A stretch of DNA of 64,000 bases from Pseudomonadota bacterium (GTDB lineage Bacteria; Pseudomonadota; Gammaproteobacteria; Steroidobacterales; JBCBZW01). The stretch covers positions 1-64,000 of the forward strand of contig JBCBZW010000012.1 of the NCBI GenBank assembly GCA_039815145.1, written 5' to 3'. A model generated the notes under the pieces. It was not told the DNA's origin, made no database searches, and saw only the letters and a list, made by a program, of their open reading frames with translations. The position numbers were made by a program, and so were the translations under genes. Shown here in pieces: positions 6,947-60,377 of the stretch. Each line of letters starts with the position of its first letter. Position 1 is the stretch's first letter.

Positions 6947-6962
6947 GTCAGCCAAGTCGCCG

Positions 6963-8312: not shown

Positions 8313-9271
8313 CGACTCACCGCCTTGGCGTCCAGGAGATCATCGAGGATGGCGACGAGCTCATCACGGCTCTTGGCAAAGCGGTGATCGCCATTGAGCT
8401 CCAGCACCTTGGCAAGCGACCGGGAGATCGCCAGCGTAGCCTCGCGCTCGTTAGGCACGACGAGGTAGCGCATCTTCGGATCCTGCGCCGTGAGGAAATG
8501 CAGTACCGCGTCGGCCACGGGCTGTGGGTCGGCATGATGCGAACGATCCTGCTGGGCGAAGGAGGCGAAGCGGGCGATCTCCTCGCGGAACGCGGACGTG
8601 CGCTCCCCCCGATCCAACTGCTCCAGGCGCCGGTGCATGTTCTTCATGATGTTGGAGCGGAAGTTGCCGGGCTCGACGATGCTCACCTCCACATCGAACT
8701 TGGCCATCTCGCCCGCCAGGGCGTCCGTGTAGGCCTCCATCGCGTGCTTGGACATGCCGTAGGGGCCGAACAGGGTGGCGGAGAACAACCCGGCGACGGA
8801 ACCGGTGGTGGTGATGCGTCCTTCGCTCTCGATGATGAGCGGCGCGAACGCCTTGGTGACGCGGTAGGGGCCCATCACGTTGACGTCCATGATGAACTGC
8901 ATGTCGTCTTCGCTCACCTCGATCAGGGGATCGAAGAGGAACACGCCGGCGTTATTGACCAGGCCGTACAGGCCACGGCCGCGCGCACGAATGGTGGCGA
9001 CGGCGGCATCGATCTCGTCCTGGCGGGTAACGTCCAGGCGGATACCCTCCATGTTCGGGTGGGCACTCAGGGCGTCGATGTCGCGGGCCTTGCGCGCGCC
9101 CGCGTAGACGTAGAAGCCCTCGTCGGCCAGGGTGGTGGCGATGCGGTGGCCGAGACCCGAGCTCGCACCGGTGACGAGCACGGCCCGTGGCGAAGGGGCG
9201 TTATGGTCATCGGCGTACGCGCTGGAAGCACCAAGGGCGAGCAAGGTCATTAGGGCAACGAGTCGTCTCAC
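8309..9271 (-). CDS. Short-chain dehydrogenase/reductase with signal peptide
   Basis: This is a classical SDR of 320 residues. The Rossmann motif VLVTGASSGLG lies near residue 31, NNAGV near residue 110, and the catalytic segment has GSVAG followed by YGMSK. Unusually, the chain begins with an apparent secretion signal, RRLVALMTLLALGASSAYA, ahead of the Rossmann fold. The GTG at 9271 was chosen because it opens this signal and follows GGAG by about 8 nt. An ATG at 9250 would shorten the signal. A start further upstream would add about 58 residues without family character. It overlaps the downstream transporter gene by 4 bp. Confidence 0.85.
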   Translation of the reverse strand: MRRLVALMTLLALGASSAYADDHNAPSPRAVLVTGASSGLGHRIATTLADEGFYVYAGARKARDIDALSAHPNMEGIRLDVTRQDEIDAAVATIRARGRGLYGLVNNAGVFLFDPLIEVSEDDMQFIMDVNVMGPYRVTKAFAPLIIESEGRITTTGSVAGLFSATLFGPYGMSKHAMEAYTDALAGEMAKFDVEVSIVEPGNFRSNIMKNMHRRLEQLDRGERTSAFREEIARFASFAQQDRSHHADPQPVADAVLHFLTAQDPKMRYLVVPNEREATLAISRSLAKVLELNGDHRFAKSRDELVAILDDLLDAKAVSR

Positions 9272-9338
9272 GGGGGTTCTCCGGGATAGGGTGTGAGCGC
9301 CACACGCTAGCCGGCGACCGGGATCGATCGACCCTTCC

Positions 9339-9403
9339 TCGACCAATGCGAGGAAACTATCGACGAGGAATTTGGTCGACGAGGGTGGGGCGTTGGTCGA
9401 CGA
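9339..9403. promoter_or_regulatory. Candidate LytTR operator (direct repeats)
   Basis: Two identical 11-mers, TTGGTCGACGA, start at 9372 and 9393, exactly 21 bp or two helical turns apart. An inverted copy of the core, TCGACCAA, sits at 9339. LytTR-family regulators are known to bind paired direct repeats with about this spacing. The repeats lie between the divergent SDR gene and the LytS/LytR-type pair, about 105-135 bp before the kinase start, so autoregulation is plausible. This is an inference from geometry, not from a known consensus. Confidence 0.5.
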
Positions 9404-9506
9404 CAAGGCCCGCTCCGCCGACGCCACCCCGACTTCCGCCGACACCCGTCCCCGCGACCGGGGACGCTGGGCTACGATCGACTACCCCACCACCCCCTGG
9501 GTCACG

Positions 9507-10622
9507 ATGACGCCAACAAGCAGTTCGCCCCCCTTCTCCCAGAGATCCGCAGTGCTGATAGCCGGCCTGTTCTGGGCGGTGGTGGTGCTCGTCAATCTGG
9601 GGCCGGACTGGCAGCGCTTTGCCACGGCCCGCGAGGCGCTGGAGGTGATCGGCCTCACCACAGTGCTGCAAATGGCGGTGGCCGCCGTCACCATCGCTTA
9701 CCTCGTGCCGCGGTGGCTCGATAAGGGCGCCACTGGCCGCTTCCTGCTACTGCTGCTGCTCGCCGTGCTATGCGCAGCAGAGGTAAACATCCTCGTCAGC
9801 TACTTCTATCTGGAGCCCACCCACACGGAGGGCTACGGCGCCCGCTACCAGGAGATCCTCGGCGACCTCACCCTCGTCGAACGTCTCGGATTCTCCTGGG
9901 TCAGCCGCTACATCCTGCTCTCGAAGCTGCCCCACCTCGTGCTGCCGGCGGCCGTACTCATCGCCGTGCGCTACTACCGGCGCCAGCAGTCCCTCCTGCA
10001 GCTGCGCGAGCAGCAGCAGGCGGCTGAGCTGAATGCGCTGAAGAGCCAGCTGAACCCCCACTTCATCTTCAACACGCTCAACAACATCTACGCCCTCGCC
10101 CTCAAGCGCTCCACGCTGACCGCGGAAGCGGTGGCGCGGCTGTCGAGCATCCTCGACTACGTGTTGTACCGAGGCAGCGAGCGCGTCGTCTCCCTGCGCG
10201 ATGAGGTGGCGATGATCGAGGCCTACATCGCCCTCGAGCAGCTGCGCTTTGGCGATCGGCTCACGGTGCACTTCTCCCAGCACGCCTCGCCCGACCACCA
10301 GGTGCCGCCCCTGCTGTTCCTGACCCTGCTGGAGAACGCCTTCAAGCACGGCGTGGCCACGTCCCTCGATGCGGCGGTGATCGAGATCAGCCTCGTGGAG
10401 GAGGCGGGTGCGCTACGCTTTGCGATCAGCAACAGCCGCCCGCCCGCGTCCGCCCCGGCTCGACGCGACGCTGGTGAACAAGCCATCGGGCTTCGCAATC
10501 TGCAGCGCCAGCTCGCCCTGCAGTGCCCGGACACGCACGAACTCACCCTGGTGGACGGCGACGACCGCTACACCGCCACCCTGACGCTGACGGACACATG
10601 CCCAATCGATACCGCTGCCTGA
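9507..10622 (+). CDS. LytS/YpdA-type sensor histidine kinase
   Basis: This membrane sensor kinase of about 371 residues belongs to the His_kinase group that pairs with LytTR regulators. Four hydrophobic helices span about residues 15-155. A Gln-rich cytoplasmic coil (QQSLLQLREQQQ) leads to the motif LNPHFIFNTLNNI with the phosphoacceptor His near residue 185. The ATPase part contains PPLLFLTLLENAFKHG. The ATG at 9507 directly precedes the first helix. Its Shine-Dalgarno is weak, and a TTG at 9372 is open in frame but would add about 45 polar residues and read through the repeat region. The response regulator starts inside its last 25 bp. Confidence 0.85.
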   Translation: MTPTSSSPPFSQRSAVLIAGLFWAVVVLVNLGPDWQRFATAREALEVIGLTTVLQMAVAAVTIAYLVPRWLDKGATGRFLLLLLLAVLCAAEVNILVSYFYLEPTHTEGYGARYQEILGDLTLVERLGFSWVSRYILLSKLPHLVLPAAVLIAVRYYRRQQSLLQLREQQQAAELNALKSQLNPHFIFNTLNNIYALALKRSTLTAEAVARLSSILDYVLYRGSERVVSLRDEVAMIEAYIALEQLRFGDRLTVHFSQHASPDHQVPPLLFLTLLENAFKHGVATSLDAAVIEISLVEEAGALRFAISNSRPPASAPARRDAGEQAIGLRNLQRQLALQCPDTHELTLVDGDDRYTATLTLTDTCPIDTAA

Positions 10623-11317
10623 TCGTCGACGACGAGGCCCTCGGCCGCGAACTCATCAGCACGCACCTGGAGCAGTTCCCCCAGTTCGAGGTGGTGGCAT
10701 CGTGCGCGAGCGCGGTGGAGGCGAGTCGCGTGCTGGCCGAGGAATCCGTGGACCTGCTGTTCCTCGACATCGAGATGCCGGTGATGAAGGGCACGGACTT
10801 CTACCAGGGGCTGCGCGAGCGCCCCGCGGTGATCTTCACCACGGCCTATCGCGACTATGCGGTGGAAGGTTTTGAGTTGGAGGCCGTCGACTACCTGCTG
10901 AAACCGATCGTCTTCGCACGGTTCTTCACGGCCATCCAGCGGTTCCTTGCCTCACGGGAGGGAGCGAATCTCGCGGAAGATGCCACCCCAACGGCCGGCG
11001 ACGCGGCTGGCGGCACCATCTTCGTGCGCAAAGACCGCAAGCACCTGCGCTTATGGCTGGACGAGATCCTCTACGTGCACAGCGCGAAGGACTATCTCGA
11101 GGTGTACACCAAGACCCAGATGCACATGATCAAGGGCACGATGAACGCCTTCTCGACCAAGCTCGGGTCCGCGTTCCTGCGCATTCACCGTTCTTACCTG
11201 GTGAACCACCGGCACATCACGGCGATCACGGCGCACGACGTGGAGGTGGGGAGTGTCGAGCTGCCGATCAGCGATCAGTACCGTGCTGCCGTCATGGCGG
11301 TGATAGAAGCACGGTAG
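10598..11317 (+). CDS. LytTR-family response regulator
   Basis: This is a 239-residue regulator with an N-terminal receiver (acidic DDE at 11-13, phosphoacceptor Asp57 in FLDIEMP, Lys102 in LLKP) and a C-terminal LytTR DNA-binding domain from about residue 130. The LytTR part has the typical EILYVHSAKDYLEVYT and FLRIHRSYLVNH segments. It begins at an ATG 25 bp before the kinase stop, so the pair is translationally coupled. It is the likely reader of the paired repeats upstream of the kinase gene. Confidence 0.93.
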   Translation: MPNRYRCLIVDDEALGRELISTHLEQFPQFEVVASCASAVEASRVLAEESVDLLFLDIEMPVMKGTDFYQGLRERPAVIFTTAYRDYAVEGFELEAVDYLLKPIVFARFFTAIQRFLASREGANLAEDATPTAGDAAGGTIFVRKDRKHLRLWLDEILYVHSAKDYLEVYTKTQMHMIKGTMNAFSTKLGSAFLRIHRSYLVNHRHITAITAHDVEVGSVELPISDQYRAAVMAVIEAR

Positions 11318-11325
11318 ACCGCCGC

Positions 11326-11865
11326 CTAGGTAAGGCGCTGGAACTCCCCCTGCCAGGCCAGGTTCTTCGGCGGCTGGGTGCTGCGCAAGGCCAAGGAACG
11401 CTCATCGATGGCCCGTTGGGTGGCGAGCACGCCGTCGAGGTGATCGACCTCATGCTGGAGCAGCGCGGCGTAGTCGCCGGTCAGCCACACGCGATGTTCC
11501 CGCCACTCGGCGTCCCGATAGGTCAGTCGACACGCCTTGGGCATCCGCACGCGCACCAGCAGGTTGGGGAAGCTCATGCAGTCTTCCCAGTACTCCATCT
11601 GATCGTGATCGTGATCGTCCAGCACCGGGTTGTAGAAGGTCTGCGGCGCATCGCCCCCCACCCTCATGGCGACGATGCGCCACGGCACGCCAATCTGCGG
11701 GGCGGCGATGGCACGCCCCCAGCCGTGCTCGGCCTGAAAGGCGCGCATCGTGTCGTGGAGATCTTGCACCTGCGCGGATAGCCGCGGCACGTCGCCCGCG
11801 GTGAGCGCTTGGCAGGGTTCGAACAAGCTCGGGGTACCGAGCTGAAGGATCGGTTGCACTGACAT
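11326..11865 (-). CDS. def: Peptide deformylase (divergent)
   Basis: This is an iron/zinc-dependent deformylase that would remove the formyl group from nascent N-terminal Met. All three family motifs are visible in 179 residues. Motif 1 is GRAIAAPQIG (the usual form is GxGLAAPQ), motif 2 is EDCMS with Cys96 (usually EGCLS), and motif 3 is QHEVDH with metal-binding His138, His142 and catalytic Glu139. The metal ligands are intact, but motifs 1 and 2 are off-consensus and no fmt lies next to it, so it is probably a secondary paralogue. The ATG at 11865 was chosen by length; another ATG at 11883 is possible. Confidence 0.85.
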   Translation of the reverse strand: MSVQPILQLGTPSLFEPCQALTAGDVPRLSAQVQDLHDTMRAFQAEHGWGRAIAAPQIGVPWRIVAMRVGGDAPQTFYNPVLDDHDHDQMEYWEDCMSFPNLLVRVRMPKACRLTYRDAEWREHRVWLTGDYAALLQHEVDHLDGVLATQRAIDERSLALRSTQPPKNLAWQGEFQRLT

Positions 11866-11923
11866 ACGCTGACGATAGCGCATCGCTCGGCTCGAATGGA
11901 GCACGTCACCATCGATCGCAAAG

Positions 11924-11949
11924 TGCGAGGGGACAGATGCCCCCTCGCA
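11924..11949 (-). terminator. Terminator-like hairpin after the GDPD gene
   Basis: A perfect 9-bp stem, TGCGAGGGG with CCCCTCGCA, and an 8-nt loop lie 21 bp beyond the stop of the minus-strand GDPD gene. A short run of T (CTTTG) follows on that strand. Confidence 0.5.
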
Positions 11950-11969
11950 TTCAACCGGTCGCCTAGCGA

Positions 11970-13238
11970 TCAGTCCTGCAGCTGCGGGATCGCCTTGCAG
12001 TTGGCGTAGAAAGTGGTGGTTGCAGGCCAGTCGTCGAACAGACCGAAGATGCCCACCTGCTGCACCAGCACGTCCAGCGTGCGCAGGATGTCGCCGTCGT
12101 TCTGGAGCGCATCCACCGTGGTGTTGTAGTAGAAGGCACCGCCCGAGGGGATGATGTCCTCGTTCACGCGGCCCGAACGCTCGATGGTCCAGCCGATCAG
12201 CTTCAGGCCCGCCTCGCGAGCGCGGCGCGCGTACTCCGACGGCAGGATCTCATCCGCCTCCGCATCCACGGTGACCATCGCCGGCATCGGCGGGGCCAGG
12301 ATGTTGACGCCCTGGTCCACGAGGTCCGTGAACTCCTTGAGCGCCGGCGGGTTGCTGACCAGATCCACCGGGTCACGGCCCTCGAGGTACACGGCCTGCT
12401 CACCGAAGTCCGGCGTGTTCTGCACCCAGTACAGCACGTCCGGCAGGTTGAAGGATTGCACCCACACGTCCTCGGCGGGCACGTTGGCGGCGCGATACTC
12501 GTCGATCACCTTCTGGCGAATGACATCGTAAGGCAGGAAGCCCTTGTCCTCGTCGTAGGTCTTGAGCTCCGGCGTCATCTTGCGGCCGAGGGACTGGAAC
12601 AGCGCGATGCTCTCGGCGTGGGAGAGGAGCGTGCCGCCGGTGGCGTAGAGATCCGTGCGGAAGTCGGCGGTGCCGCCGAGGTACTCTTCCGCCGTGGTGG
12701 CACGCGAGTCCGCGGCATCCATCTTGCCGACCAGAGACTTGTATTCCTGCAGGCTGATGTCGCTCGTGCAGCAGCGCGCCGTGGCGCCCTGCACCAGCTC
12801 GCCGTTCTCATCGAACTGGGCCGGCTGGAAGGGCGCTTCGCACTTGGCGGCGAGGTTCGTGACCAGGATGTTGGTGGTGGTGTGCAGGTCACACTCGGAG
12901 TGGCGGCAGACCAGCTCGCCGTCGTTGGTCACGGCGATGTCGCACTCGAGGATGCCGGCGCCCATGCGAGCGGCCGCGAGGTAAGACTCCTTCGTGTGCT
13001 CGGGGAACTGCAGCGGGGCGCCGCGGTGGCCGATGGAGAAGTCGCTCGGGAAGTAGCGCGCACGACGTTGGGCGCAGCGGGCGAGCTCTTCCTTGAGCGG
13101 ACCGTCCTCGAGTTGATCCAGGAGGTAGAACGGACGCGGACCGAGCTGCGCCGTGCGCGGCAGCACCTCGTCGGCAAACGAAGCACTGGCGCCGAGGGTG
13201 ATGCAAAGGGTGGTGACGGCTAACAAAAGCGATCGCAT
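11970..13238 (-). CDS. Exported glycerophosphodiester phosphodiesterase
   Basis: This is a GDPD/PLC-like enzyme that hydrolyses glycerophosphodiesters to glycerol-3-phosphate and an alcohol. The 422 residues begin with a signal peptide (RSLLLAVTTLCITLGASASFA). The catalytic core shows GHRGA with His71, PEHT with Glu80, LECD with Glu98 and Asp100, and CRHSECDL with His113. Several Cys in the mature part (for example ARCCTS) suggest disulphides outside the cytoplasm. It resembles periplasmic GlpQ in role, but is longer and stands alone without glpT. The promoter should lie in the 147-bp gap upstream, where no boxes stand out. Confidence 0.9.
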   Translation of the reverse strand: MRSLLLAVTTLCITLGASASFADEVLPRTAQLGPRPFYLLDQLEDGPLKEELARCAQRRARYFPSDFSIGHRGAPLQFPEHTKESYLAAARMGAGILECDIAVTNDGELVCRHSECDLHTTTNILVTNLAAKCEAPFQPAQFDENGELVQGATARCCTSDISLQEYKSLVGKMDAADSRATTAEEYLGGTADFRTDLYATGGTLLSHAESIALFQSLGRKMTPELKTYDEDKGFLPYDVIRQKVIDEYRAANVPAEDVWVQSFNLPDVLYWVQNTPDFGEQAVYLEGRDPVDLVSNPPALKEFTDLVDQGVNILAPPMPAMVTVDAEADEILPSEYARRAREAGLKLIGWTIERSGRVNEDIIPSGGAFYYNTTVDALQNDGDILRTLDVLVQQVGIFGLFDDWPATTTFYANCKAIPQLQD

Positions 13239-13385
13239 GAGGTGAAGCTCCCTTAATGGCCATTCGCGAAATGCGATGGCGAGTGTAGGAGCCGAAAAGC
13301 GACGCGCTGGTGAACCTTATGTGAAGTTAGTGAGACTGTCCGTGGTCACTCCCGTGACAGGCGCGCGGGCCCGAGGGCACCGCGA

Positions 13386-14909
13386 TCACCCGACCCCCGC
13401 AAAGCGAATACCGGCGAGACCTGCCACCTCCCGCTTCCAGCTGGTGATATCCCGGGCGCTGAAGCTGGAGAGCTTGTCGTGGCCACAGGCACGGGCAAGC
13501 ACCTGCATGAGCGCGGTGCTGGCACTGAAGAACCGGGCCAGACGTTCCGCCCCCACCTGCACGTCGAGGCGCTTGCGCAGCTCAGGCTTCTGAGTGGCGA
13601 TGCCCACCGGACAGTTGTTGGAGTTGCACATGCGCGCCGCGACACACCCCACCGCCTGCATGGCGGAGTTACTGACCGCCACCGCATCCGCGCCCAGGGC
13701 CATCGCCTTGGCAAAGTCCTCAGCCACTCGCAGCCCACCGGTGATCACCAGCGTGACCTCAGACCCGGCCCGCGCGTCCAGATGACGACGCGCCCGTGCC
13801 AGGGCGGGAATCGTGGGCACGGAGATGTGGTCGCGGAAGATTAGGGGGGCCGCGCCCGTGCCGCCACCGCGGCCATCCAGGATGATGTAGTCGGCGCTCG
13901 CCGCCAGGGCGAAGTCGATATCGTCCTCGATGTGGTTGGCCGAGAGCTTGAAGCCGATGGGAATGCCGCCGGTGCGCTCGCGCACTTGATCGGCCAGGCG
14001 CTTGAAGTCGGCCGGCGTGCTCAACTCGGCGAAGGTGGCCGGCGAGATCGCTGCCTGCCCCGGCGCGAGGCCGCGCACCTCGGCGATCTTGCCCAGCACC
14101 TTATCGCCTGGCAGGTGGCCACCGGTCCCGGTCTTCGCCCCCTGCCCGCCCTTGAAATGAAAGGCCTGCACGTTGTCCACGCGATCGAGTGACCAGCCGA
14201 ACTGGGCGGAGGCGAGCTCGTAGAAGTAGCGTCCGTTCTCCGCCTGCTCCTCGGGCAGCATGCCCCCTTCACCGGAGCAGATCCCGGTACCGGCCAGCTG
14301 CGCGCCACGGGCGAGGGCGATCTTCGCCTCCTCCGAGAGCGCGCCGTAGCTCATGTCGGACACGAACAGGGGAATGTCCAGCTGCAGGGGCTTCGCGGCG
14401 CGCGGCCCGATCGTCACCGACGTGTCGACCGCCACCTCATCAAGAAGCGGCTTGCGCGCCATCTGCGCGGGTAGCACCTGAATGTCATCCCATTCGGGCA
14501 GCTGCCGGCGCGGTACGCCCATGGCACCCATCTCGCCGTGATGACCGAGCTTGCTGAGGCCATCGCGCGCCAACGCGTGGATGCGGGCAACGGTCGGCTC
14601 CTCCGGCGTCACCTTCGCTTGCGGTATGTCGCTCTCGGGCGCCGGAGCCGGATCGCCGGCACGCTTGTCGCCAAGGCGCGCATGGGAGCCATCGCAGAAC
14701 GGGGCATTCGCGCTCGCCTTACACTGGCAAAGCGCCACCGATCCGTCCTGCTCGGCCGTGAACTTCAGCGGCGCGATGCCCGTCCCCGCATGAGAGCCGT
14801 CGCAAAAGGGTTGGGTCTTGGAGAAGCCACAGCGGCACCAGTAGTAGTCCTTCCCCTTCTCGACGGTAACGGACGCAGGCGTCTTGGCGGCGATAATCGG
14901 CGTAGTCAT
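13386..14909 (-). CDS. CDGSH iron-sulphur / glutamate-synthase-domain fusion
   Basis: This 507-residue protein joins two CDGSH 2Fe-2S modules to the FMN-binding domain of glutamate synthase. Module 1 has Cys25, Cys27, Cys36 and His40 (CRCGFSKTQPFCDGSH). Module 2 has Cys61, Cys63, Cys72 and His76. From about residue 130 the chain is a GltS TIM-barrel, with FVSDMSYGALSEEAK, GTGICSGEGGMLPEE and GGGTGAAPL. It lacks the amidotransferase and most other parts of real glutamate synthase, so glutamate synthesis is unlikely. It looks like a flavin oxidoreductase with its own iron-sulphur input. It overlaps the upstream reductase gene by 4 bp (ATGA). Confidence 0.85.
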   Translation of the reverse strand: MTTPIIAAKTPASVTVEKGKDYYWCRCGFSKTQPFCDGSHAGTGIAPLKFTAEQDGSVALCQCKASANAPFCDGSHARLGDKRAGDPAPAPESDIPQAKVTPEEPTVARIHALARDGLSKLGHHGEMGAMGVPRRQLPEWDDIQVLPAQMARKPLLDEVAVDTSVTIGPRAAKPLQLDIPLFVSDMSYGALSEEAKIALARGAQLAGTGICSGEGGMLPEEQAENGRYFYELASAQFGWSLDRVDNVQAFHFKGGQGAKTGTGGHLPGDKVLGKIAEVRGLAPGQAAISPATFAELSTPADFKRLADQVRERTGGIPIGFKLSANHIEDDIDFALAASADYIILDGRGGGTGAAPLIFRDHISVPTIPALARARRHLDARAGSEVTLVITGGLRVAEDFAKAMALGADAVAVSNSAMQAVGCVAARMCNSNNCPVGIATQKPELRKRLDVQVGAERLARFFSASTALMQVLARACGHDKLSSFSARDITSWKREVAGLAGIRFAGVG

Positions 14910-49377: not shown

Positions 49378-49710
49378 GATGTTCGATTCACACCTTGGCG
49401 GCTGGCGAAGCGTGGCGCGGCGGCTGGCCGCTGCGGACACTAGCCCGACACGCATTGGATCGCTACCCCCTGGAGTCGTTCCAAGCACGTGGCATTCACG
49501 TTTCCTCGGCAAACGGTGAACTCTCGAAGGCCGTGGGGGTACCTACGAGGGGCGGCCGTGCCCACACGACTTGTCAGGCCCGTGGGGCGACGTAACATCG
49601 GATTATCGCGTTAGCTCCAGCGAGGCGTGGCGCGGTTTGCGCAGACCACGCGTGAGGGAGCCTGCCAGCCCCCAGCGCTGTAGCTCAAAGGACCCGAAGG
49701 ATCACCCGGC
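49378..49710. other. Intergenic region before the TIR operon
   Basis: This 333-bp gap lies between the divergent membrane-protein gene and the TIR gene. Part of it may be coding if the membrane protein starts at 49512. I see no RNA gene, no clear promoter boxes and no terminator; the promoter of the TIR operon must lie here. Confidence 0.35.
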
Positions 49711-50586
49711 GTGAGCACCCCGACCGACGAGGCCCCCCGCCCCGACATCTTCCTGAGCTACAAGCGCGAGGAACGCCGCGAGGCCGGTCGCGTGGCGCAG
49801 GCGCTCGAGCAGGTGGGCTGGGACGTGTGGTGGGACCCGGAGCTGCGCGGCGGCGAGCGCTTCGACGACGTGATCGGCAACGCGCTCGCGCGCAGCCGCT
49901 GCGTGGTGGTGCTGTGGTCGCGGGCGGCGGTCGAGTCGCGCTACATCCGCGATGAGGCGTCCTTCGGCCTCAAGGAGCGCAAGCTCGTGCCCCTGTGCCT
50001 CGATGATTGCGAGCTGCCGTTTCGGTTTCAGGGCTTGCACACGCTCGATTTCTCGCGCTGGTCCGGCAAGGCGGACGCGCCCGAGTTCACTCTCCTGCGA
50101 CGCGACCTCGAGGATCGTATCGGCGCGCCTGGTAGCGGCGGGGCGCACACCCAGGACCCACAGGTAGTGGACCCTCCACCACCCAAACGCCACCTAGCGT
50201 TGATCATCGCCGGCGCGAGTGCCGCACTGCTGGCCGTGGTCATCGCCTGGGTGGGCATCGGCGGCGATACGCCGACGGGCGAATGCGTCCTACGTCTTAC
50301 GGTCTCCGTCGACGGTCCGCGCACCTCACCGCGCGAGCTAGAGCCACGCGCACTGGAGGTAACCAATGATGCGGATCGTGTCCGCCCCCTATCCCTGCAG
50401 CGTGACCCACAGACCAGTGCCCGGGTGGCCACCACCAGCTTCGACCGACGCAAGCTGACCACGTGGCGCGTCGTTTTGAGGTGGCATGACGGCACCCAAT
50501 CTCAGTTTCCAGTACGCACAGGCTGCGAGAGCGGCGAGGAAGTCTCCGACGATGGACTGGCAAGACTACGCATCACCACGCTCTAG
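49711..50586 (+). CDS. TIR-domain protein with membrane anchor
   Basis: This is a 291-residue protein with an N-terminal TIR domain at about residues 12-135, one membrane helix at about 161-183 (HLALIIAGASAALLAVVIAW) and an outer domain of about 105 residues. The TIR box is IFLSYKREERREA. VVVLWSRAAVESRYIRDEA carries the conserved Ser and Glu82, the presumed catalytic Glu of NAD-cleaving bacterial TIRs. The start is GTG. It is the first gene of a three-gene operon (35-bp overlap with the next). Bacterial TIR domains act in antiphage NAD depletion or in signalling. Confidence 0.87.
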   Translation: MSTPTDEAPRPDIFLSYKREERREAGRVAQALEQVGWDVWWDPELRGGERFDDVIGNALARSRCVVVLWSRAAVESRYIRDEASFGLKERKLVPLCLDDCELPFRFQGLHTLDFSRWSGKADAPEFTLLRRDLEDRIGAPGSGGAHTQDPQVVDPPPPKRHLALIIAGASAALLAVVIAWVGIGGDTPTGECVLRLTVSVDGPRTSPRELEPRALEVTNDADRVRPLSLQRDPQTSARVATTSFDRRKLTTWRVVLRWHDGTQSQFPVRTGCESGEEVSDDGLARLRITTL

Positions 50587-51487
50587 GCGCGTGCCGCCGC
50601 TAGGGAGGTTGCTCGCCACGTGCGCGTTCCTAGGCCCCTGGTTCAGCGCCCACGCCGTCGAAGCCCTGCTCGCCGGCGACCTCACCAACGCGGCCACCGG
50701 CCAACCCGTGGTGGGCGCCACGCTCACGGTGAGCTTCGAAGACGAACGTTGGCAGGTGGCCAGCGACGAGCAAGGCCAGTTCAGCGCAAACCTAGACTTG
50801 CCCGGCGGACAACGCCTGCACATCGTGCAGATCAGCGCCGAGCACCCGAACTTCGCAGCCAAGACGCTGGAAGTGGCGATCGTGGACGGCGCGCCGGAAG
50901 AGCCGATCACGCGCCTGGACCTGTTCCCCGCCGCGCTCGCCGAGTGCTTGCTGAAGAAGGATAACCTGGTGGTGGTGGGCTTTTTTCGCTCGCCCCTCGG
51001 CGAGGACATCCCGGACCTCCCGGACCGCCTCGCGGAGGCGCTGCAGTTCGATCTGCTCACGGTAATGCAGCAACTGCACCTGCCGCCCGCCCTGCAACCC
51101 GTCTTCGCTCCTTGCCGCGATGCCAAGCCGCGGGTGGTCACCCAGGCCGGCACCCTGGCGCGTGCGCTGCGGGCCCATGCGGTGGTGCACGGAGACGTTA
51201 GCCGCAGCACTGGCGACTTCCTGGTCCGCTCCCACGTGAGCGACGCCTACGATATCGCGTCGCCCCCCATCACCACGCAGAACCCGGCGGTCGATCTGGC
51301 GAACCCCAGCGCCGCGCAATTGAACCCCCAGACCTACGGTGCGGTGCTCATGGCGGTGGCCGCCGGCATCGCCAACCGACGTGACTGCCCCGGCGCCCGC
51401 ACGGTGATCGCCGCGGCCGAAGCCCTCGGTGAAGACGTGTCCGCCCTGAGCACCCTGATGGAAGGCAACTGCGGGGCGAGCGAATGA
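50552..51487 (+). CDS. Exported carboxypeptidase-regulatory-like protein
   Basis: This is a 311-residue protein. After an N-terminal hydrophobic stretch (LGRLLATCAFLGPWFSAHA) comes a carboxypeptidase regulatory-like beta domain (LAGDLTNAATGQPVVGATLTV, residues 37-110). A second domain then follows with VVVGFFRSPLGEDIPDLPDRLAEALQFDLL and ALRAHAVVHGDVSRS. The second domain recalls the nucleotide-free TolB/FlgO-like folds seen in some exported signalling proteins, but this is weak. The ATG at 50552 lies inside the TIR gene; a GTG at 50591, right after its stop, is an alternative. It overlaps the pseudo-caspase gene by 4 bp. Confidence 0.7.
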   Translation: MDWQDYASPRSRRVPPLGRLLATCAFLGPWFSAHAVEALLAGDLTNAATGQPVVGATLTVSFEDERWQVASDEQGQFSANLDLPGGQRLHIVQISAEHPNFAAKTLEVAIVDGAPEEPITRLDLFPAALAECLLKKDNLVVVGFFRSPLGEDIPDLPDRLAEALQFDLLTVMQQLHLPPALQPVFAPCRDAKPRVVTQAGTLARALRAHAVVHGDVSRSTGDFLVRSHVSDAYDIASPPITTQNPAVDLANPSAAQLNPQTYGAVLMAVAAGIANRRDCPGARTVIAAAEALGEDVSALSTLMEGNCGASE

Positions 51488-53580
51488 ACATCCTGCGGAA
51501 TCTGTCACCACCCCGTCTGACCTGCACAGTCGTGGCGTTCGTGATGGTAACCCTGTTGACCGCCTTGCCCAGTCACGCCATCGGCGACGTCTCTCTGGAG
51601 GAGGAGCTCAGCCGCCTCGAGGAGATTCGATCGCTGATCGCGGACATCGAAGCCGCGCATAGCGATGAAGACCTGAGCGAGCTGCAACGACGCCTGGACA
51701 AGTTGGATCGACAGCTCGACCGCGCGGGCAACAGCACGTCGCGCCGCCAAACACGCCAGCTAGCCAATGCGGATGTGGCACTGGATGCGCTCGCCGCCGA
51801 TGCCCGCGCCTTGAAGGACGAACTTACCCTCTACTTCCCGCAGGCACGCAACCGCGTCGCCGTGTTCACCCTCGATGACCCTGACGGCCTGGGCGTGGGC
51901 GACGACCTGAGCTACCTGCTCTCTCGCGAGCTCTTGTTCACGGCACGCGCGCGGTCCTTCGCCGTGGTCAACTTCCAGCAGGGCGTGGCCCCCGCTCGCT
52001 CCGGCGACCTCGGGTATTTCGATAAGGTCGAGCGGCTCACGCGTGATCAGGACTACTCGATCGCGCTGTGGGGTCGGTTGGTCCGCGCGCGCGATGGCGT
52101 GCGCCTCAGCCTATTCGCCCAGGCCTTTCCCACCCTCGATGAGCGCGTGCGCTTCGCACACCGCGTCGACATGCCGACATCGCGCGGCAACCAATGGCTC
52201 ACGGCTGAGCTGACGCACGATCGCTTCAAGCTCCTCGACGTGGTCTTGCCCCACTCCTTCGTCGACCGCCTGCCCGCCCTCGCCGAGGAGGTCCGCACCC
52301 TCCGCGCCAGGGCCAATCTCAGCGCCCGACGCGTCGGCCGACTCACCGGGGACGCCCCCCACTACATCGCCGAGGCGGCGGGCGATTGGGTGCGCATGCA
52401 GGAGCGCGGCGGCGACAGCGGTTGGACCTCGGTGCGCGCACCGTGCCGCGGTGAGTGCGACGTGCTCCTAGACGCCATGACCTTTGCCAACGAGGTGGTG
52501 GCCGCTGGGGCGGGGCTCGCGCCGCGCGCACCGGCGCCGTCCCTGAGCACGGACACCAAGATCGTGTTCGAAGAACTCTCCGCGCTGCACGCCCTCTCGC
52601 GGGAGGACTACGCCACCGCGCGAACTTACGCGGCGAACAACGACGCGCCGGCGAGCCAGACCGCCGGCCTTACCAACATGGCCACGATCGCTCAGCTCGC
52701 CGAGCGCCTGCGCACCGACAGCACGGTGGATACGCCGACCCTGATCGCGCAAGCGGATACTTTAGCTAAGCTGCGCACCTACGCGCCCGAGGCGAGCCGC
52801 AATCTGCGGGTGCTCGCCGATGCCGTGCCGCCGAGCGTTGGCGACCCCCAGTCGGTGACGTGGAAGGCGACCACCGAACGTCAGGCTTTCCTCGCCCAAC
52901 GCAAGTGGGCCCTGGTGATCGGGGTCGGCGACTACGCCCACGCCGGTCCGCGTAAGCACTCGGAGGAGGATGCGCGACGCGTCGCCCAGGTGCTCCAGGA
53001 CAGCGGCTACCGCACCGATCTGCTGATCAACCCCTCGCGACGCGAAGTCACCGCCGGGGTGCGCGCCCACGCCAGCGACGCGGAGGTAGTGGTGTTCGCC
53101 ACGGGCTACGTGCGCATGGTGGATGATGCGCCCTCGCTGTTGCTGCCCTCCTACGATCCCTCCAGCGTCCGTGCTGCCGATGCCGTTCCCCTCGCCACCC
53201 TGATCACCGGCAACGGCCATCGCACCCTGGTCGTGGCCCCGCCGCTGGGGCCGACCCTGCGCGAGCGCCTGCCCCTCGATCAAGGCGACCTCCTGGTGAA
53301 CGTCACCCCCCTCGACGCCCCGCGGGTCTCCATCGGGGCCGGCCCCTTCGCTTACTTCCTGAGCCGCAGCCTGCGCGCCCAGGGCAATCGCGGCGGCGGC
53401 CACGACGGCCTGGTGACCCTGCAGGACCTCGCCGAGCAGATGAACGCCGACGCGTCTCGCCTGGGGGTGCCCCTCGAGGCCATGGCGCTGGTGGGCAACG
53501 GCCGCGCCTCGACGGCGACGGGACTACTCGCTACCCCTCGCAACGTTCGCACCCGCGCCACGGGGGCGGCCAGCGACTAG
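51484..53580 (+). CDS. Exported caspase-like protein, catalytic dyad missing
   Basis: This 698-residue protein has a signal peptide (VVAFVMVTLLTALPSHA) and a coiled segment at about 35-110. A FlgO/TolB-like domain lies at about 120-225 (RVAVFTLDDPDGLGVGDDLSYLLSRELL). A helical middle is followed by a C-terminal peptidase C14 (caspase) fold from about residue 475. The fold is shown by WALVIGVGDYAHA, EEDARRVAQVLQDSGYRTDLL, LLLPSYDPS and the p10-like GPFAYFLSRSLRAQG with HDGLVTLQDLAEQM. The usual SGHG (His) is replaced by ATGYVR near 540, and the DACR (Cys) strand by VVAPPLG near 582, so protease activity is unlikely. Confidence 0.8.
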   Translation: MNILRNLSPPRLTCTVVAFVMVTLLTALPSHAIGDVSLEEELSRLEEIRSLIADIEAAHSDEDLSELQRRLDKLDRQLDRAGNSTSRRQTRQLANADVALDALAADARALKDELTLYFPQARNRVAVFTLDDPDGLGVGDDLSYLLSRELLFTARARSFAVVNFQQGVAPARSGDLGYFDKVERLTRDQDYSIALWGRLVRARDGVRLSLFAQAFPTLDERVRFAHRVDMPTSRGNQWLTAELTHDRFKLLDVVLPHSFVDRLPALAEEVRTLRARANLSARRVGRLTGDAPHYIAEAAGDWVRMQERGGDSGWTSVRAPCRGECDVLLDAMTFANEVVAAGAGLAPRAPAPSLSTDTKIVFEELSALHALSREDYATARTYAANNDAPASQTAGLTNMATIAQLAERLRTDSTVDTPTLIAQADTLAKLRTYAPEASRNLRVLADAVPPSVGDPQSVTWKATTERQAFLAQRKWALVIGVGDYAHAGPRKHSEEDARRVAQVLQDSGYRTDLLINPSRREVTAGVRAHASDAEVVVFATGYVRMVDDAPSLLLPSYDPSSVRAADAVPLATLITGNGHRTLVVAPPLGPTLRERLPLDQGDLLVNVTPLDAPRVSIGAGPFAYFLSRSLRAQGNRGGGHDGLVTLQDLAEQMNADASRLGVPLEAMALVGNGRASTATGLLATPRNVRTRATGAASD

Positions 53581-53601: not shown

Positions 53602-54165
53602 CTAGGCGCCTGTGGCGAGAAGTGCCTTCGCTGCCGACAGTGCTCGCCGCTCCCGCATCCACCGCCAGAGATCGAAGGCGATGGCCGGCGCCAGCCACCA
53701 GGGCAACCCGTGCAGGGAGGCCTGGCGACCGCCAGGCAGCGGTATCGACACCGAGGCGGCCCACCACATTAGCCCTGTCAGGAGCAGGTAGACGCCGAGG
53801 TTGAGCACGATCGTGTAGTGACGTAGACGTATCGCCCGATACTGGGCTTGCAAGTATGCGCGGGGCGTAGCGAGGGCATCGCGGTGCAGGCGGAGGAGCG
53901 CCGGGTCGGCTACCACCGTCGCTAGCGTCGCTACCAGAGCCAAACCCGCGAGGAAGGCAAAGCTCACCCAGCTGAATGCCACCACCGTAGCGTAGGCCCA
54001 CAGGGCATAGATCAGAGCGGTGGACACCTTCGACAGCCACCAGTGGGCATATCGCCAGCGATCGAGCATGGCGAAGCGCCGGGCAAGACCCCCCACATCG
54101 TGCCCCTCCATCGGCTCACCGCGAGCGTGCCAACGATCCGCGAGCGGTTGCCATTCCTCCATCAT
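53602..54165 (-). CDS. Membrane protein coupled to ECF sigma factor
   Basis: This 187-residue protein has a cytoplasmic N-terminus of about 50 charged residues (MMEEWQPLADRW, LARRFAMLDRW) and four hydrophobic helices. Its ATG overlaps the TGA of the sigma factor gene, so it is a candidate membrane anti-sigma factor, with the N-terminal segment binding sigma. No zinc-binding anti-sigma motif (HxxxCxxC) is present. The family is not recognised. Confidence 0.7.
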   Translation of the reverse strand: MMEEWQPLADRWHARGEPMEGHDVGGLARRFAMLDRWRYAHWWLSKVSTALIYALWAYATVVAFSWVSFAFLAGLALVATLATVVADPALLRLHRDALATPRAYLQAQYRAIRLRHYTIVLNLGVYLLLTGLMWWAASVSIPLPGGRQASLHGLPWWLAPAIAFDLWRWMRERRALSAAKALLATGA

Positions 54166-54668
54166 TTTCCAGTGCTCTCCACGCAACGGGTGAGCTGCAG
54201 GCGGGAGCGGCGCAGTTTGACGGTCACCGTGTTCGCACGCTCGCCCAAGGCGTTGGCGATCTCCGTGTTGCCCAATCCCTCCAAGGCCAGCACGGCCACT
54301 CGCTGGAGCGTCGGCGCGAGACGCGCCAGGCACCGTTGCAGCAGCGATCGACGTTGATCAGCATCCACTTGCTCCAGCGCGGACGGCGCTTCATCGGCGA
54401 GACGCTCCAGCGCCTCGTCCCCACTGCCTTTGGGCTGTCGGGCAGCCACGCACACGTGGGTGGCTGCCCGGTTCTGGGCGATGCGCGCGACGTAGGCTCT
54501 CAGGGTGTTCGGATCCTGCAACTTCGCGAGCGCACGCCAGACCGCCAGCAGGATGTCCTGCTCCAGCTGTTCCGCCAGAAAATCGTCCCGTTCGTAGGCA
54601 CGGGCGATCCCCCTGATGAGCGGGAGGTGATCAGCGCACACGCGCTCGAAAAGCTGTTCTTGCGTCAT
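54162..54668 (-). CDS. ECF-type sigma factor
   Basis: This 168-residue extracytoplasmic-function sigma factor has a region 2 around LIRGIARAYERDDFLAEQLEQDILLAVWRAL and TLRAYVARIAQNRAATHV, and a region 4 helix-turn-helix LEGLGNTEIANALGERANTVTVKLRRSR. The ATG at 54668 gives the normal start (MTQEQLFERV); a long in-frame extension upstream re-reads the DUF805 gene in another frame and was discarded. It lies between a DUF805 protein gene and an overlapping membrane-protein gene. Confidence 0.88.
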   Translation of the reverse strand: MTQEQLFERVCADHLPLIRGIARAYERDDFLAEQLEQDILLAVWRALAKLQDPNTLRAYVARIAQNRAATHVCVAARQPKGSGDEALERLADEAPSALEQVDADQRRSLLQRCLARLAPTLQRVAVLALEGLGNTEIANALGERANTVTVKLRRSRLQLTRCVESTGK

Positions 54669-54703
54669 GTTCTTCAGCGACTGTGCAGCGGCCGGGGATG
54701 GCC

Positions 54704-55144
54704 CTAGACCATCGAAGGCCGTCGGTGGGCTGAGTGCGAGGTCGGGGGCAGCCCCAGCGCCGCCACGGTCAAGGGAAGCAGAGGGAGCAGGATGAGGGAC
54801 CCGGCCCATGCAGGGGAACGCCCCATGTCTCGCAATCGCTTCGTGGCGACGATCCACGTCGGGTACAGCCACAGGAGCGTCGCGATGGCCAGGGCCGACT
54901 GGCGCAACGGAGGACCGCCATGCGCCAAGGCCGTGGCGAGGAGATAGGCGTGGACCCCGTACACGAGCCAAGAGGCGAACCAATAGCGGGCGCGAGAGAG
55001 GGTTCCATTAGGGGAGAACAGATCGGCAAAGAATGCTCGCGAGGACAGGGGCTCTGCGGTGCAGCGTTCGATCAGGTAGTGGCCGATGCCAAGCCCGGCG
55101 GCGGTGGTGACACAGACATAGGTGGCCAAGGACTGTAATTCCAT
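54704..55144 (-). CDS. DUF805-like membrane protein
   Basis: This is a 146-residue inner-membrane protein with helices at about 5-22, 50-70, 78-95 and 110-130. The motifs GTLSRARYWFASWLVYG and TWIVATKRLRDMGRSPAWAG match DUF805, a family without known function. The ATG at 55144 has AGGAGA at good distance. It is the first gene of the operon with the ECF sigma factor (35-bp gap). Confidence 0.75.
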   Translation of the reverse strand: MELQSLATYVCVTTAAGLGIGHYLIERCTAEPLSSRAFFADLFSPNGTLSRARYWFASWLVYGVHAYLLATALAHGGPPLRQSALAIATLLWLYPTWIVATKRLRDMGRSPAWAGSLILLPLLPLTVAALGLPPTSHSAHRRPSMV

Positions 55145-55549
55145 GGGAGGGCTTCTCCTGCAGGTGGTGGGTGGAAAGCAGACTTGCCTTGCAGTCCACG
55201 ACCCTGTGGAAAAAGTGACAAGGGATTTTGCTATCGGCGACCAACACAAGAGTCAGGGCGTGCCTTCTGAACGCCAGATCAACAATAGAACAATGATCCA
55301 ATTGATATTTAAAGAATATTTTTATACTAGATAATATTATTTAGTTTTGCTTCTCTACTACTGCCAGATCACCTACTGCCAGATCACCGAACCTCCGAGC
55401 AACGTTTGCCTTCCAGCCGTAGGCACGACGACTCCGGCTGCGGCGGTGGACAGGGTCCAAATAGCACCCATCCAACGCCTGCGGCACACTTGCCGCGATA
55501 TTGATCGCACACGTCGCCTGCGCTTCGATTCCCCCCAGGGAGGGTCACC
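55145..55549. other. AT-rich divergent intergenic region
   Basis: This 405-bp gap separates the DUF805/ECF operon (minus) from the TPR protein gene (plus). Positions 55280-55345 are strikingly AT-rich compared with the rest of the window, with TTTAAAG, AATATTTTTATAC and AATATTATTTAG. Several -10-like boxes occur on both strands, for example TATACT at 55323-55328 with TTGATA at 55302-55307. A 15-bp tandem repeat follows. No gene is visible. Confidence 0.5.
55359..55388. repeat. 15-bp tandem direct repeat
   Basis: Two exact copies of TACTGCCAGATCACC stand head to tail (55359-55373 and 55374-55388), next to the AT-rich patch. They could be a regulator site or a slippage product. Confidence 0.85.
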
Positions 55550-57415: not shown

Positions 57416-59053
57416 CTAGCGGCCGCCCGCCGGGCACCCCGCCAACGGTGGCTCCACGGCCCACGGTTCGCCGATCCCCGGCGCTTCCAGGAACCACTCG
57501 ATGTCCGCCCCCGCCGCGGCCAGCAGACCGTTGTTACGCGCAACGTTCCCGCCGAGGCTTCGATCGAACGCGTAGATCCCCTGGGCGAGCGGTGGCGCCG
57601 ACCCATCCCCAGCACGGCGCGCGATCACGCAATTGTTTTCCAAGGTCACGTCCTGGTACTCGCCGAAGAGCAGGAACGCCGATCGAAAGCCATCGTTGAT
57701 GACGGGCGGCCCGATACCGATATCGATCAGCCGGTTGCCACGGATTGTCGCGCCTTGCGGCAGGTACGAACCGATGTAGATACCCGTTGCCGGCGCGCGC
57801 AGGATCAGGTTGTCCTCGATGGCGAGGCCACGGATGGGCAGCGTAGGCTCGGCGAAGGGCGCCAGCAGGATACCGGCCGCGTTTTCGTCGTAGGGGCGCA
57901 CGGTGTTGGCGAAGTTGGTGTAGACGATCGTATTGCGCGCCAGCGTGAGGTTTTCGATCACCCCGTCAGCTCGCGCTTCCAGCTCGATCCCCTTGGGGGC
58001 CTGGCCGAAGGGGTCCTGGGTGGCCCGCCAGCCGTCGACATCGATCGTAATCAAGTTGTCACTGATCTCGCAGTCACGCAGGGTCGGCTCACCCGGTGGG
58101 TTCGGCGGGACCTCGTTGGCCCACACGCGGATCCCATCGGACACGCGGAGGAATCGATTACGTGAGACGCGCTGCGTATCGCCGCCCAACGCTGAAATGC
58201 CGGTGGCGTTCATCCCCGTCGTAAAGGCCTCGACGCGATTGTCGAAGACGAACTGACGCGGTCCATGGGTCTCGATCGCCGCGCGCACGCCGAAGGCACC
58301 GACCCCGACCGAGGTGAAGGTGTTGCGCAGAATCTGCGCACCCGCGGTGTCCGTGAAGACGCTCGAGTGATCCCAATCCGGCACCGTACGATTCAGGGTC
58401 CCGATCCCTTCGAAGCGGTTGTCCTGCACGACCACGTTGGCCACGTCCACGCCGTTCAGCACGACGATGTTCACCGTTTGCCAATCGATGAAGCGGTTGT
58501 TCTCGATCACGATGTTGCGCCCCACGTACGCGCGGATACCGTGACGGCGATTGAGGAGGACATCGTCGAAGGTGGCATCACCGTCGGTCACCGGGTTGTT
58601 CGCACCGTTACCATCGAAGGTGAGGTTGGCGATGCGCAGATCGGAGACATCGGTGGTGAAGATCTCTCCCGCCAGCAGCGCTTCGAAGTCACCTTGCGCA
58701 TCTGCCAGGTGCAGGATCGCCGCGGCCGGATCTTCCACCTGGCCGCGCAGGGCGAAGCCGCCGCAGCGCAGGCGGAGAATCACCCATGGCACCTCCGGCG
58801 GCGGTTGAGCTGGCTTCTCCAATTGGTAGCGTCCTGGCGGGAACACCACCTCGAGGGCGTCCCCCGGTTGCTCGTCGAGACGGACGCACGCCTCATCCAG
58901 CGCGCGTTGGATGGCCGCCCGATCGTCCAAACCGTCATCCGGTACGGCGCCGAAGCGGGTGACATCCAGGGTGGTGGTAGCGTTGGCGACAGTGCACACG
59001 GCACCCATTGCGGCCGTAAGGACGCCGCTGGCAACGGTCAGAAGTCTCCCCAC
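57416..59053 (-). CDS. Exported right-handed beta-helix protein (pectate-lyase-3-like)
   Basis: This 545-residue protein has a signal peptide (LLTVASGVLTAAMGAVCTVANA), then the opening of a pectate-lyase superfamily domain, LDVTRFGAVPDDGLDDRAAIQRALDEA. A long series of beta-helix coils with N-N-x-F/I-like rungs follows (IVIENNRFIDW, VVVQDNRFEGIG, ILRNTFTS, VTLENNCVIARR). Such proteins bind or cut acidic polysaccharides; no clear lyase residues can be named. The GTG at 59053 is supported by AAGGAGG; frames further upstream lack protein character. It is convergent with the TPR gene (27-bp gap). Confidence 0.83.
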   Translation of the reverse strand: MGRLLTVASGVLTAAMGAVCTVANATTTLDVTRFGAVPDDGLDDRAAIQRALDEACVRLDEQPGDALEVVFPPGRYQLEKPAQPPPEVPWVILRLRCGGFALRGQVEDPAAAILHLADAQGDFEALLAGEIFTTDVSDLRIANLTFDGNGANNPVTDGDATFDDVLLNRRHGIRAYVGRNIVIENNRFIDWQTVNIVVLNGVDVANVVVQDNRFEGIGTLNRTVPDWDHSSVFTDTAGAQILRNTFTSVGVGAFGVRAAIETHGPRQFVFDNRVEAFTTGMNATGISALGGDTQRVSRNRFLRVSDGIRVWANEVPPNPPGEPTLRDCEISDNLITIDVDGWRATQDPFGQAPKGIELEARADGVIENLTLARNTIVYTNFANTVRPYDENAAGILLAPFAEPTLPIRGLAIEDNLILRAPATGIYIGSYLPQGATIRGNRLIDIGIGPPVINDGFRSAFLLFGEYQDVTLENNCVIARRAGDGSAPPLAQGIYAFDRSLGGNVARNNGLLAAAGADIEWFLEAPGIGEPWAVEPPLAGCPAGGR

Positions 59054-59165
59054 GAATCTCCCCTCCTTGGGCGATGTCAGTGGTTCGCTTCTAGCGCACT
59101 GCACTCCCGAGGCACAACATGGCCCCGAAACCCGACACCGAAGGCGAGTACCGCTTCGGCGTGCC

Positions 59166-60377
59166 CTAGCGCTCGGCCGCCACCAGCGCAGTCGGTGGCA
59201 CCGCAGCTGTGGACGCATCGCTCAAGGAAGAGTGGGCAGCCCAGGGCAAGGCGCCGGCGAGGCCAGCCATCGCCAACAGTACCCCTACGGTCGGAAACCG
59301 GCGCCGACTCGCTCGAGGAGATCGGCGCGGGTTCGCCTCGACGAAGGCCTCGAGGAACTGAGTGACCGTGGGGGTGCGCGAGGCGCGATCGAAGCGCAGG
59401 GTCCGCTCCAGCGCCGCCCACTCGCGACGGTTGAGCTGCGCCGGCTTCGGCGGACGATGACCTAAGTCACGCGCTTGGTTCGCCGGCATGCGACCGAAGG
59501 GATGGGTGCCGGTCAGGGCTTCGTAGGCGACACAACCGAGGGCGTAGACGTCGTCACGCGGATCGGGCGTCTTGTGTTCGAGCATTTCCGGGCTGGCGTA
59601 GGCGGGGGTCATGGCGCCCAGGGCCTGGGGATCGAAGCGCGTGTGCTCCTGGGCCGCGGCGTCCGGTTGGTAGGCGCGGGCGATGCCGAAGTCGATCACT
59701 TTGGCATCCCCGGTGCGCGTCACGAACACGTTGCTGGGTTTGAAGTCCGCGTGAAGGATGCCGTTGGCATGAGCGTAGGCGAGGGCCTCGCCGGCCTGGC
59801 GCACCAGTCGTCGCGCCAGCGTGGGCGCGAGGCCGCCGGGGCCGGAGGCGTCGATGCGCTTGCGCAGCGACACGCCTTCGAGCAGTTCCATGGTGGCGAA
59901 CACGGTGTCACCGTCGCGATCGAAATCGTTCACCCGCACGATGTGCCGGTGCGTAAGCGCCTGAGAGCGCTGCACTTCTCGCTCCAGGGCAACGGTCGCC
60001 GCCTCGACGCCGATCTCCGCCACGGTGATCACCTTCACGGCCACGTAGGGCGAGCGCGAGTGGGCCTCGAGCTTGCGCTTGTCGAGGGCCTTGAACACCC
60101 GCCCCATGCCGCCGCGCCCGATTTCCGCCTGCAGCACGAAGCGTCCGTTGATCTCATCGCCCACGGCCACGGTCTTCTTGCGGCGCGGGGGCACGGGCAG
60201 GCGAACACAAGCGCTGGCCAACTCGGTGCTGGCGGGGAACACTTGGGTCTGCGTGTACTGATCGTCGACCACAGACAGGGCGAGGGCGGCGGCGGAGGCA
60301 ACCATGATGTCGGGGCTCTTCTCAATGAGGCGGATGGACCTGTGGGCGCGCACTCCCGCGCTATCGCCCACGCTCAT
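59166..60377 (-). CDS. Membrane Ser/Thr protein kinase
   Basis: This is a 403-residue Hanks-type kinase. The Gly loop IGRGGMGRV (about 87-92), VAVKV with Lys115, the catalytic loop ILHADFKPSNV (Asp211, Lys213, Asn216) and IDFGIA (Asp229) are all present, as is ASPEML of the activation region. The His-Arg-Asp motif is HAD, an RD-negative form. A single helix (FPTVGVLLAMAGLAGALPWA) near residue 370 leads to a short outer tail. There is no sensor domain of size. The ATG at 60377 has no Shine-Dalgarno and may be leaderless; an ATG at 60305 is possible. It is divergent from the ECF sigma operon. Confidence 0.9.
   Translation of the reverse strand: MSVGDSAGVRAHRSIRLIEKSPDIMVASAAALALSVVDDQYTQTQVFPASTELASACVRLPVPPRRKKTVAVGDEINGRFVLQAEIGRGGMGRVFKALDKRKLEAHSRSPYVAVKVITVAEIGVEAATVALEREVQRSQALTHRHIVRVNDFDRDGDTVFATMELLEGVSLRKRIDASGPGGLAPTLARRLVRQAGEALAYAHANGILHADFKPSNVFVTRTGDAKVIDFGIARAYQPDAAAQEHTRFDPQALGAMTPAYASPEMLEHKTPDPRDDVYALGCVAYEALTGTHPFGRMPANQARDLGHRPPKPAQLNRREWAALERTLRFDRASRTPTVTQFLEAFVEANPRRSPRASRRRFPTVGVLLAMAGLAGALPWAAHSSLSDASTAAVPPTALVAAER

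What the first reader, a model, noticed from the sequence alone, without database searches (positions are those of the whole stretch)
49711..53580. TIR / exported regulator / pseudo-caspase operon
Three overlapping genes join a membrane-anchored TIR protein (Glu82 intact), an exported protein with a carboxypeptidase-regulatory-like domain, and an exported protein with a C14 caspase fold. In the last, the catalytic His motif (SGHG) reads ATGYVR and the Cys motif reads VVAPPLG. TIR and caspase-like proteins are both known parts of bacterial immunity and cell-death systems, but there they are cytoplasmic and the caspases usually active. Here two components are outside the membrane and the caspase looks dead, which suggests envelope sensing by outer domains that switch the inner TIR. 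I know of no described system with this set.
Basis: partly seen in the sequence, partly recalled or inferred. Interest (0 to 1): 0.75.

Follow-up and report, generated by a model that had tools for sequence, protein, structure and literature searches.

The report
Membrane TIR with exported dead caspase
This bacterium carries a three-gene chromosomal operon that pairs a membrane-anchored immune-type TIR enzyme domain with two secreted partners, one a caspase-shaped protein without its catalytic residues; its sister species keeps the same operon and has two further membrane-TIR operons with intact secreted caspases, which suggests an undescribed way of signalling from the cell envelope to the cytoplasm.

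Summary
Three overlapping genes (49711-53580, +) encode a membrane TIR protein with the catalytic-position Glu82, an exported CarboxypepD_reg-like protein, and an exported protein ending in a caspase domain. The caspase fold is supported by a profile match to 27 intact bacterial caspases (E 8e-8), an AlphaFold model (pLDDT 80) and Foldseek (MALT1 and caspases on top). The domain is dead: His became Tyr542, Cys became Leu588, and it contains no cysteine in either species. It is not decaying (dN/dS about 0.2). The operon keeps its order and chromosomal position in the only other genome of the genus and family (70/88/74% identity). It was not found in several hundred sampled genomes of the order, class and phylum, nor in plasmids or phages. 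New here: the congener has two further operons in which a TIR-TM gene precedes an exported WD40-caspase gene with an intact dyad; none of 100 other caspase neighbourhoods shows this. The window operon is thus a pseudo-caspase version of a genus-level 'membrane TIR + exported caspase' arrangement. Most likely it senses the envelope and switches the cytosolic TIR; this step is inferred. An anti-phage role is not shown: the locus is core chromosome, not a defence island.

The parts
49696..49701 (+). GAAGGA, likely ribosome-binding site of gene 1
   Evidence: sequence; the stretch AAGGACCCGAAGGATCACCCGG is identical in the congener
49711..50586 (+). gene 1: TIR (aa 12-120, Glu82) - TM (aa 163-181) - outer tail (aa 187-291, Cys192 and Cys272 conserved)
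50197..50253 (+). TM helix of gene 1 (Kyte-Doolittle 2.5), N-terminal side inside by weak charge bias
50552..51487 (+). gene 2: signal peptide, CarboxypepD_reg-like (Ig-like) domain aa 41-115, C-terminal domain unique to the genus, four conserved Cys in the mature part
51484..53580 (+). gene 3: signal peptide (to about aa 32), helical region, genus-specific domain aa 120-235, weak SH3b-like region aa 273-315, helical region, pseudo-caspase aa 473-685
52900..53538 (+). pseudo-caspase domain of gene 3
53107..53109 (+). TAC = Tyr542 at the position of the catalytic His
53245..53247 (+). CTG = Leu588 at the position of the catalytic Cys

Best explanation
The operon encodes an envelope-to-cytoplasm signalling device. 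The TIR domain lies in the cytoplasm on a single TM helix whose C-terminal tail is in the periplasm. The exported gene 2 protein and the exported pseudo-caspase (gene 3) form the outer part. The caspase domain has lost catalysis and most likely serves as a binding or assembly module. A change in the envelope would alter the outer complex, cluster the membrane TIR, and switch on TIR NAD+ cleavage or a cADPR-type product inside. It is the dead-caspase form of a genus-level arrangement in which a membrane TIR gene is followed by a gene for an exported caspase-domain protein. Shown: gene structure, domain identity, caspase fold, loss of the dyad, purifying selection, conserved order, the similar operons. 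Inferred: topology, complex formation, switching, TIR activity, biological trigger.
For: Overlapping genes in one order and place in both genomes of the family, while flanking blocks come and go. All genes under purifying selection, dead domain included (dN/dS 0.144/0.719). Signal peptides on genes 2 and 3, one TM in gene 1, conserved Cys in the predicted outer parts. Glu82 kept. Caspase fold with no catalytic residues. Two further TIR-TM + exported intact caspase operons in the congener; no such adjacency in 100 other caspase neighbourhoods.
Against: Only two genomes carry the trio, and their synteny extends beyond it, so conserved order alone is modest evidence. No measured interaction, topology or activity. 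The outer domains of the window operon and of the two similar operons show no detectable homology, so they may be convergent arrangements.
Confidence: 0.5

Rival explanations
1. Anti-phage abortive-infection system: the outer proteins recognise phage adsorption or envelope damage and the TIR kills the cell by NAD+ depletion or makes a messenger for another effector, as in Thoeris.
For: TIR matches models of anti-phage TIR proteins weakly (PADLOC SAVED_TIR 8e-10; NCBIfam ThcB4 30 bits against a cutoff of 220). Type IV Thoeris couples a TIR to a caspase-like protease (PMC12847820).
Against: Core chromosomal locus with efflux, TPR, kinase and sigma-factor neighbours, not a defence island; no copy on plasmids or phages; both species keep it at the same place; caspase is dead and exported.
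Confidence: 0.2
2. The exported pseudo-caspase is a regulator of other exported, active caspases of the cell, in the manner of cFLIP with caspase-8, and the TIR gene is a separate output that is merely co-transcribed.
For: Both genomes encode an exported intact caspase (L043, L044). Caspase folds dimerise (established knowledge).
Against: The dead domain is very diverged from those caspases (tree branch 2.1). Does not explain gene 2 nor the recurrent TIR-caspase pairing.
Confidence: 0.12
3. The TIR is not an enzyme but a scaffold, and the operon is a structural or adhesion-type envelope complex with a cytoplasmic anchor.
For: The Trp four residues before the catalytic Glu, present in AbTIR and in the five other TIRs aligned, is Tyr in both species.
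Against: Glu82 and its surroundings are strongly constrained (TIR domain dN 0.072, dS 0.60); Trp to Tyr is a conservative aromatic change.
Confidence: 0.13

Closest known systems
TIR-TM (DUF4384) + exported WD40-caspase operons in the congener G008 (L047, L048; found here, not described as far as I could find)
   Same: Membrane TIR gene directly upstream of a gene for an exported protein with a C-terminal caspase domain, same strand
   Different: Caspase dyad intact, WD40 repeats, DUF4384-type outer tail (above Pfam cutoff in one), no gene 2; outer domains not detectably homologous to those of the window
Type IV Thoeris (TIR making N7-cADPR that activates a caspase-like protease; PMC12847820 citing Rousset 2025)
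   Same: TIR and caspase-fold partners
   Different: There, as described, the TIR product activates a protease that degrades cellular proteins; here the caspase-fold protein is exported and catalytically dead, and the TIR is in the membrane
System 4 of Kaur et al. 2020, EACC1 + caspase (PMC7159879)
   Same: Two-gene membrane system with a single-TM protein upstream of a caspase protein
   Different: EACC1 is not a TIR; the caspase is N-terminal and predicted active; here it is C-terminal, exported and dead
YS pseudo-orthocaspases (PMC6426788)
   Same: Bacterial caspase homologues with Tyr in place of the catalytic His
   Different: There Cys is Ser; here it is Leu, loops by the active site are shortened, and the domain is C-terminal in an exported protein beside a TIR gene
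Exported caspase-family proteins (54 of 321 genomes of the class; N-terminal helix type in PMC3501461)
   Same: Caspase domain C-terminal in a long protein; best full-domain alignment to the window domain
   Different: Dyad intact in all 27 aligned; different N-terminal regions; no TIR gene beside them

Membership tests
TIR domain (NAD-consuming type) | TIR fold by profile | tested here: met
   TIR_2 E=2e-22, above cutoff; profile matches AbTIR, PdTIR, SARM1 structures
TIR domain (NAD-consuming type) | Catalytic Glu | tested here: met
   Glu82, invariant in seven sequences and aligned with the AbTIR/PdTIR Glu
TIR domain (NAD-consuming type) | NAD+ cleavage | not testable with these tools
   needs an assay
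Caspase (C14/orthocaspase) fold | Caspase fold over the whole domain | tested here: met
   hhalign E=7.6e-8 over 180 columns; model pLDDT 80; Foldseek top 50 all caspase family (model alignment contained intact caspases)
Active C14 peptidase | His-Cys dyad | tested here: not met
   Tyr542 and Leu588; no Cys in the domain in either species
Type IV Thoeris | Active caspase-like effector that responds to the TIR product | tested here: not met
   dead dyad and a predicted signal peptide
YS pseudo-orthocaspase | Tyr and Ser in place of His and Cys | tested here: not met
   Tyr is met, Ser is not (Leu588)
CarboxypepD_reg domain (gene 2) | Pfam gathering score | tested here: not met
   28.3 bits against 32.3, though E=2e-6 and seen in both species
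Genus-level membrane TIR + exported caspase operons | TIR-TM gene directly upstream of a gene for an exported caspase-domain protein | tested here: inconclusive
   Membrane TIR and exported caspase-fold protein in one operon are met, but gene 2 lies between them
Genus-level membrane TIR + exported caspase operons | Common descent of the outer domains | tested here: inconclusive
   no detectable profile similarity; tree placement of the dead caspase unresolved

The most novel reading that the evidence does not exclude
An undescribed class of bacterial receptor in which exported caspase-fold proteins, active or dead, act as the periplasmic sensor or adaptor of a membrane TIR enzyme and so carry envelope damage into TIR signalling in the cytoplasm.
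Probability: 0.35. Interest if true: 0.78.

Novelty: new variant of a known kind. Interest (0 to 1): 0.58.

Why it matters
TIR and caspase partners are known together inside bacterial cells. A membrane TIR tied by operon to exported caspase-fold proteins would put the sensing step outside the membrane, as in Toll-like receptors, and would give a setting in which to ask what a pseudo-caspase does. The congener's operons with intact caspases are a natural comparison of active and dead versions.

Tried and rejected
1) AlphaFold of the full-length gene 3 product with two sequences: pLDDT 35, unusable. 2) Idea that genes 2 and 3 carry TolB/FlgO-like domains as in TIR-TolB-TPR proteins: looked alike by eye, but hmmsearch and hhalign gave nothing, so dropped. 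3) Homology of the outer TIR tail to the DUF4384-type tails, or of gene 3's N-terminal part to that of the exported WD40-caspases: not detected. 4) Wider homologues of genes 2 and 3: none in GTDB contigs by peptide patterns (the second used only two patterns, a weak test), in the order (296 genomes, only the congener; two marginal hits are an overlapping antisense frame and an unrelated gene), in 369 genomes of the class (two marginal hits are to intact caspases), 399 of the phylum, or in plasmids and phages. The large searches scored only 2-3 candidates per genome, so distant relatives could be missed. 5) Catalytic dyad elsewhere in the domain: excluded for a Cys protease, since no Cys is present. 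6) Tree to find the parent family of the dead domain: long branch, unresolved. 7) A first alignment with few caspases misplaced the Cys region; the larger alignment was used.

Full report
Observation. Gene 1 (49711-50586) starts at a GTG nine bases after GAAGGA. Gene 2 most likely starts at ATG 50552, not at the longer ATG 50486, because a clear ribosome site (GAGGAAG) precedes it and a signal peptide begins there; it overlaps gene 1 by 35 bp. Gene 3 overlaps gene 2 by ATGA. Pfam gives TIR_2 (2e-22), sub-cutoff CarboxypepD_reg (2e-6) and Peptidase_C14 over only the first 63 of 233 positions (5e-8).

Relatives. The only other genome held for the genus, and for the whole family, (G008) has the same trio in the same order at 70, 88 and 74% identity. 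The neighbourhood is syntenic: RND efflux genes and an acyltransferase upstream; a TPR protein, Ser/Thr kinase, sigma factor and subtilase downstream. A block at about 53.6-55.4 kb (ECF sigma, DUF805) and a beta-helix protein gene (57.4-59.2 kb) are absent from the matching G008 stretch, so the flanks change while the trio stays whole. dN/dS by NG86: gene 1 0.209/0.75, gene 2 0.075/0.775, gene 3 0.185/0.916, caspase domain 0.144/0.719; four neighbouring genes 0.024-0.128 over 0.45-0.91. All three genes, the dead domain included, are under purifying selection. No relative of genes 2 and 3 was found elsewhere, within the limits given under Tried and rejected.

The caspase domain. A class-wide search with a related caspase found such proteins in 54 of 321 genomes. 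In the alignment with 28 of them (27 with both catalytic positions readable) the window domain follows the family from ALVIG to the C-terminus, but reads FATGYV for YYAGHG and VAPPLG for VADSCY, and has shortened loops on either side of the Cys site. Profile against profile: E 7.6e-8 over 180 columns. AlphaFold with 29 sequences gives pLDDT 80 and pTM 0.80; the 50 PDB matches listed are all MALT1, caspases or a metacaspase. Because the model's alignment contained intact caspases, the fold search is not independent of them; the profile comparison and the Pfam hit are. No cysteine exists in residues 326-698 of the window protein or in the matching part of the congener, so a shifted Cys dyad is ruled out. 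Of 101 other sampled caspase domains with both sites readable, 99 keep H and C, one has Y and one Q at the His site; that sample was seeded with an intact caspase and is biased towards intact ones.

The TIR. Glu82 is invariant among seven TIRs of the genus and order and aligns with the Glu of AbTIR and PdTIR structures. The residue four before it, Trp in those structures and in the other five TIRs aligned, is Tyr in both species. A single TM helix follows the domain, and the tail after it holds two conserved Cys. Topology is inferred from hydropathy and a weak charge bias, not measured.

In G008 two further loci carry a TIR-TM gene (one with DUF4384 above Pfam's cutoff) followed on the same strand, after about 40 and 100 bp, by a gene for an exported protein of 1425 and 1437 aa with WD40 repeats and a C-terminal caspase domain with intact dyad (FSGHG...DSCHS; YSGHG...DACYS). 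These two are clearly paralogous (exported proteins 47% identical). I then fetched 80 class-wide and 20 phylum-wide caspase neighbourhoods (about 3-18 kb, as contigs allowed). No TIR gene stood beside a caspase gene in this way; there was one same-strand TIR at 3.9 kb, one opposite-strand at 2.6 kb and one possible fusion. The TIR profile was built from local TIRs and misses remote types: it missed the TIR-like protein at L042. So the pairing of a membrane TIR with an exported caspase looks like a speciality of this genus in the data searched, with the window operon as its dead-caspase form. Descent of one from the other is not shown: the outer domains do not match and the tree does not place the dead domain.

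Mechanism. I take the operon to be an envelope-to-cytoplasm switch: an outer complex of gene 2 protein, pseudo-caspase and the TIR protein's tail, with the inner TIR as output. Shown are anatomy, conservation and loss of catalysis; complex, switching and NAD+ chemistry are inferred. A phage-defence role is possible, but the core-chromosome position and lack of mobility speak for a resident stress or cell-death function.

Known ground. Caspase homologues with N-terminal helices that may be signal peptides, and with WD40 repeats, were described in 2012 (PMC3501461). Inactive caspases are frequent in the conflict systems of PMC7159879 (about 70% in the effector position of one system), and that paper's System 4 pairs a single-TM protein with a caspase protein. 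YS pseudo-orthocaspases are described in PMC6426788, and type IV Thoeris couples a TIR to an active caspase-like protease (PMC12847820). In the searched library I found no description of a membrane TIR with an exported caspase or pseudo-caspase; subscription papers are mostly missing from it.

Noticed in passing
L047 (G008:C55) 3768-9114 and L048 (G008:C6) 4627-10084: Two paralogous operons in the congener: TIR-TM gene followed by an exported WD40-caspase gene with intact dyad. L047 is preceded by a sigma-like and a Ser/Thr kinase gene; L048 lies beside a polyketide synthase gene.
   Followed up: partly
L042 (G000:C31) 7993-13220: Two intact caspase genes without signal peptide stand tail to tail with a 983-aa protein that starts with a TIR-like domain (Pfam 9e-5, below cutoff) and has a TM helix.
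   Followed up: partly
L043 (G000:C20) 6357-9944 and L044 (G008:C36) 8159-13538: Conserved operon in both species: sigma-like and anti-sigma-like genes, an exported caspase-DUF4384 protein with intact dyad, then (seen in L044) a two-partner-secretion-type outer-membrane protein. Resembles the sigma-metacaspase operons noted for Myxococcus in PMC3501461.
   Followed up: partly
window 53602-55249 and 57419-59218: An ECF sigma/DUF805 block and a right-handed beta-helix protein gene are present here but absent from the syntenic stretch of the congener.
   Followed up: no
L123 (1-1491 +) and L155 (5805-7583 -): Two other caspase domains of the class with the catalytic His replaced (Tyr and Gln) but Cys kept.
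   Followed up: no
L011 (G003:C260): A TIR domain fused to what reads like a CHAT-type caspase-fold domain; judged by eye only.
   Followed up: no
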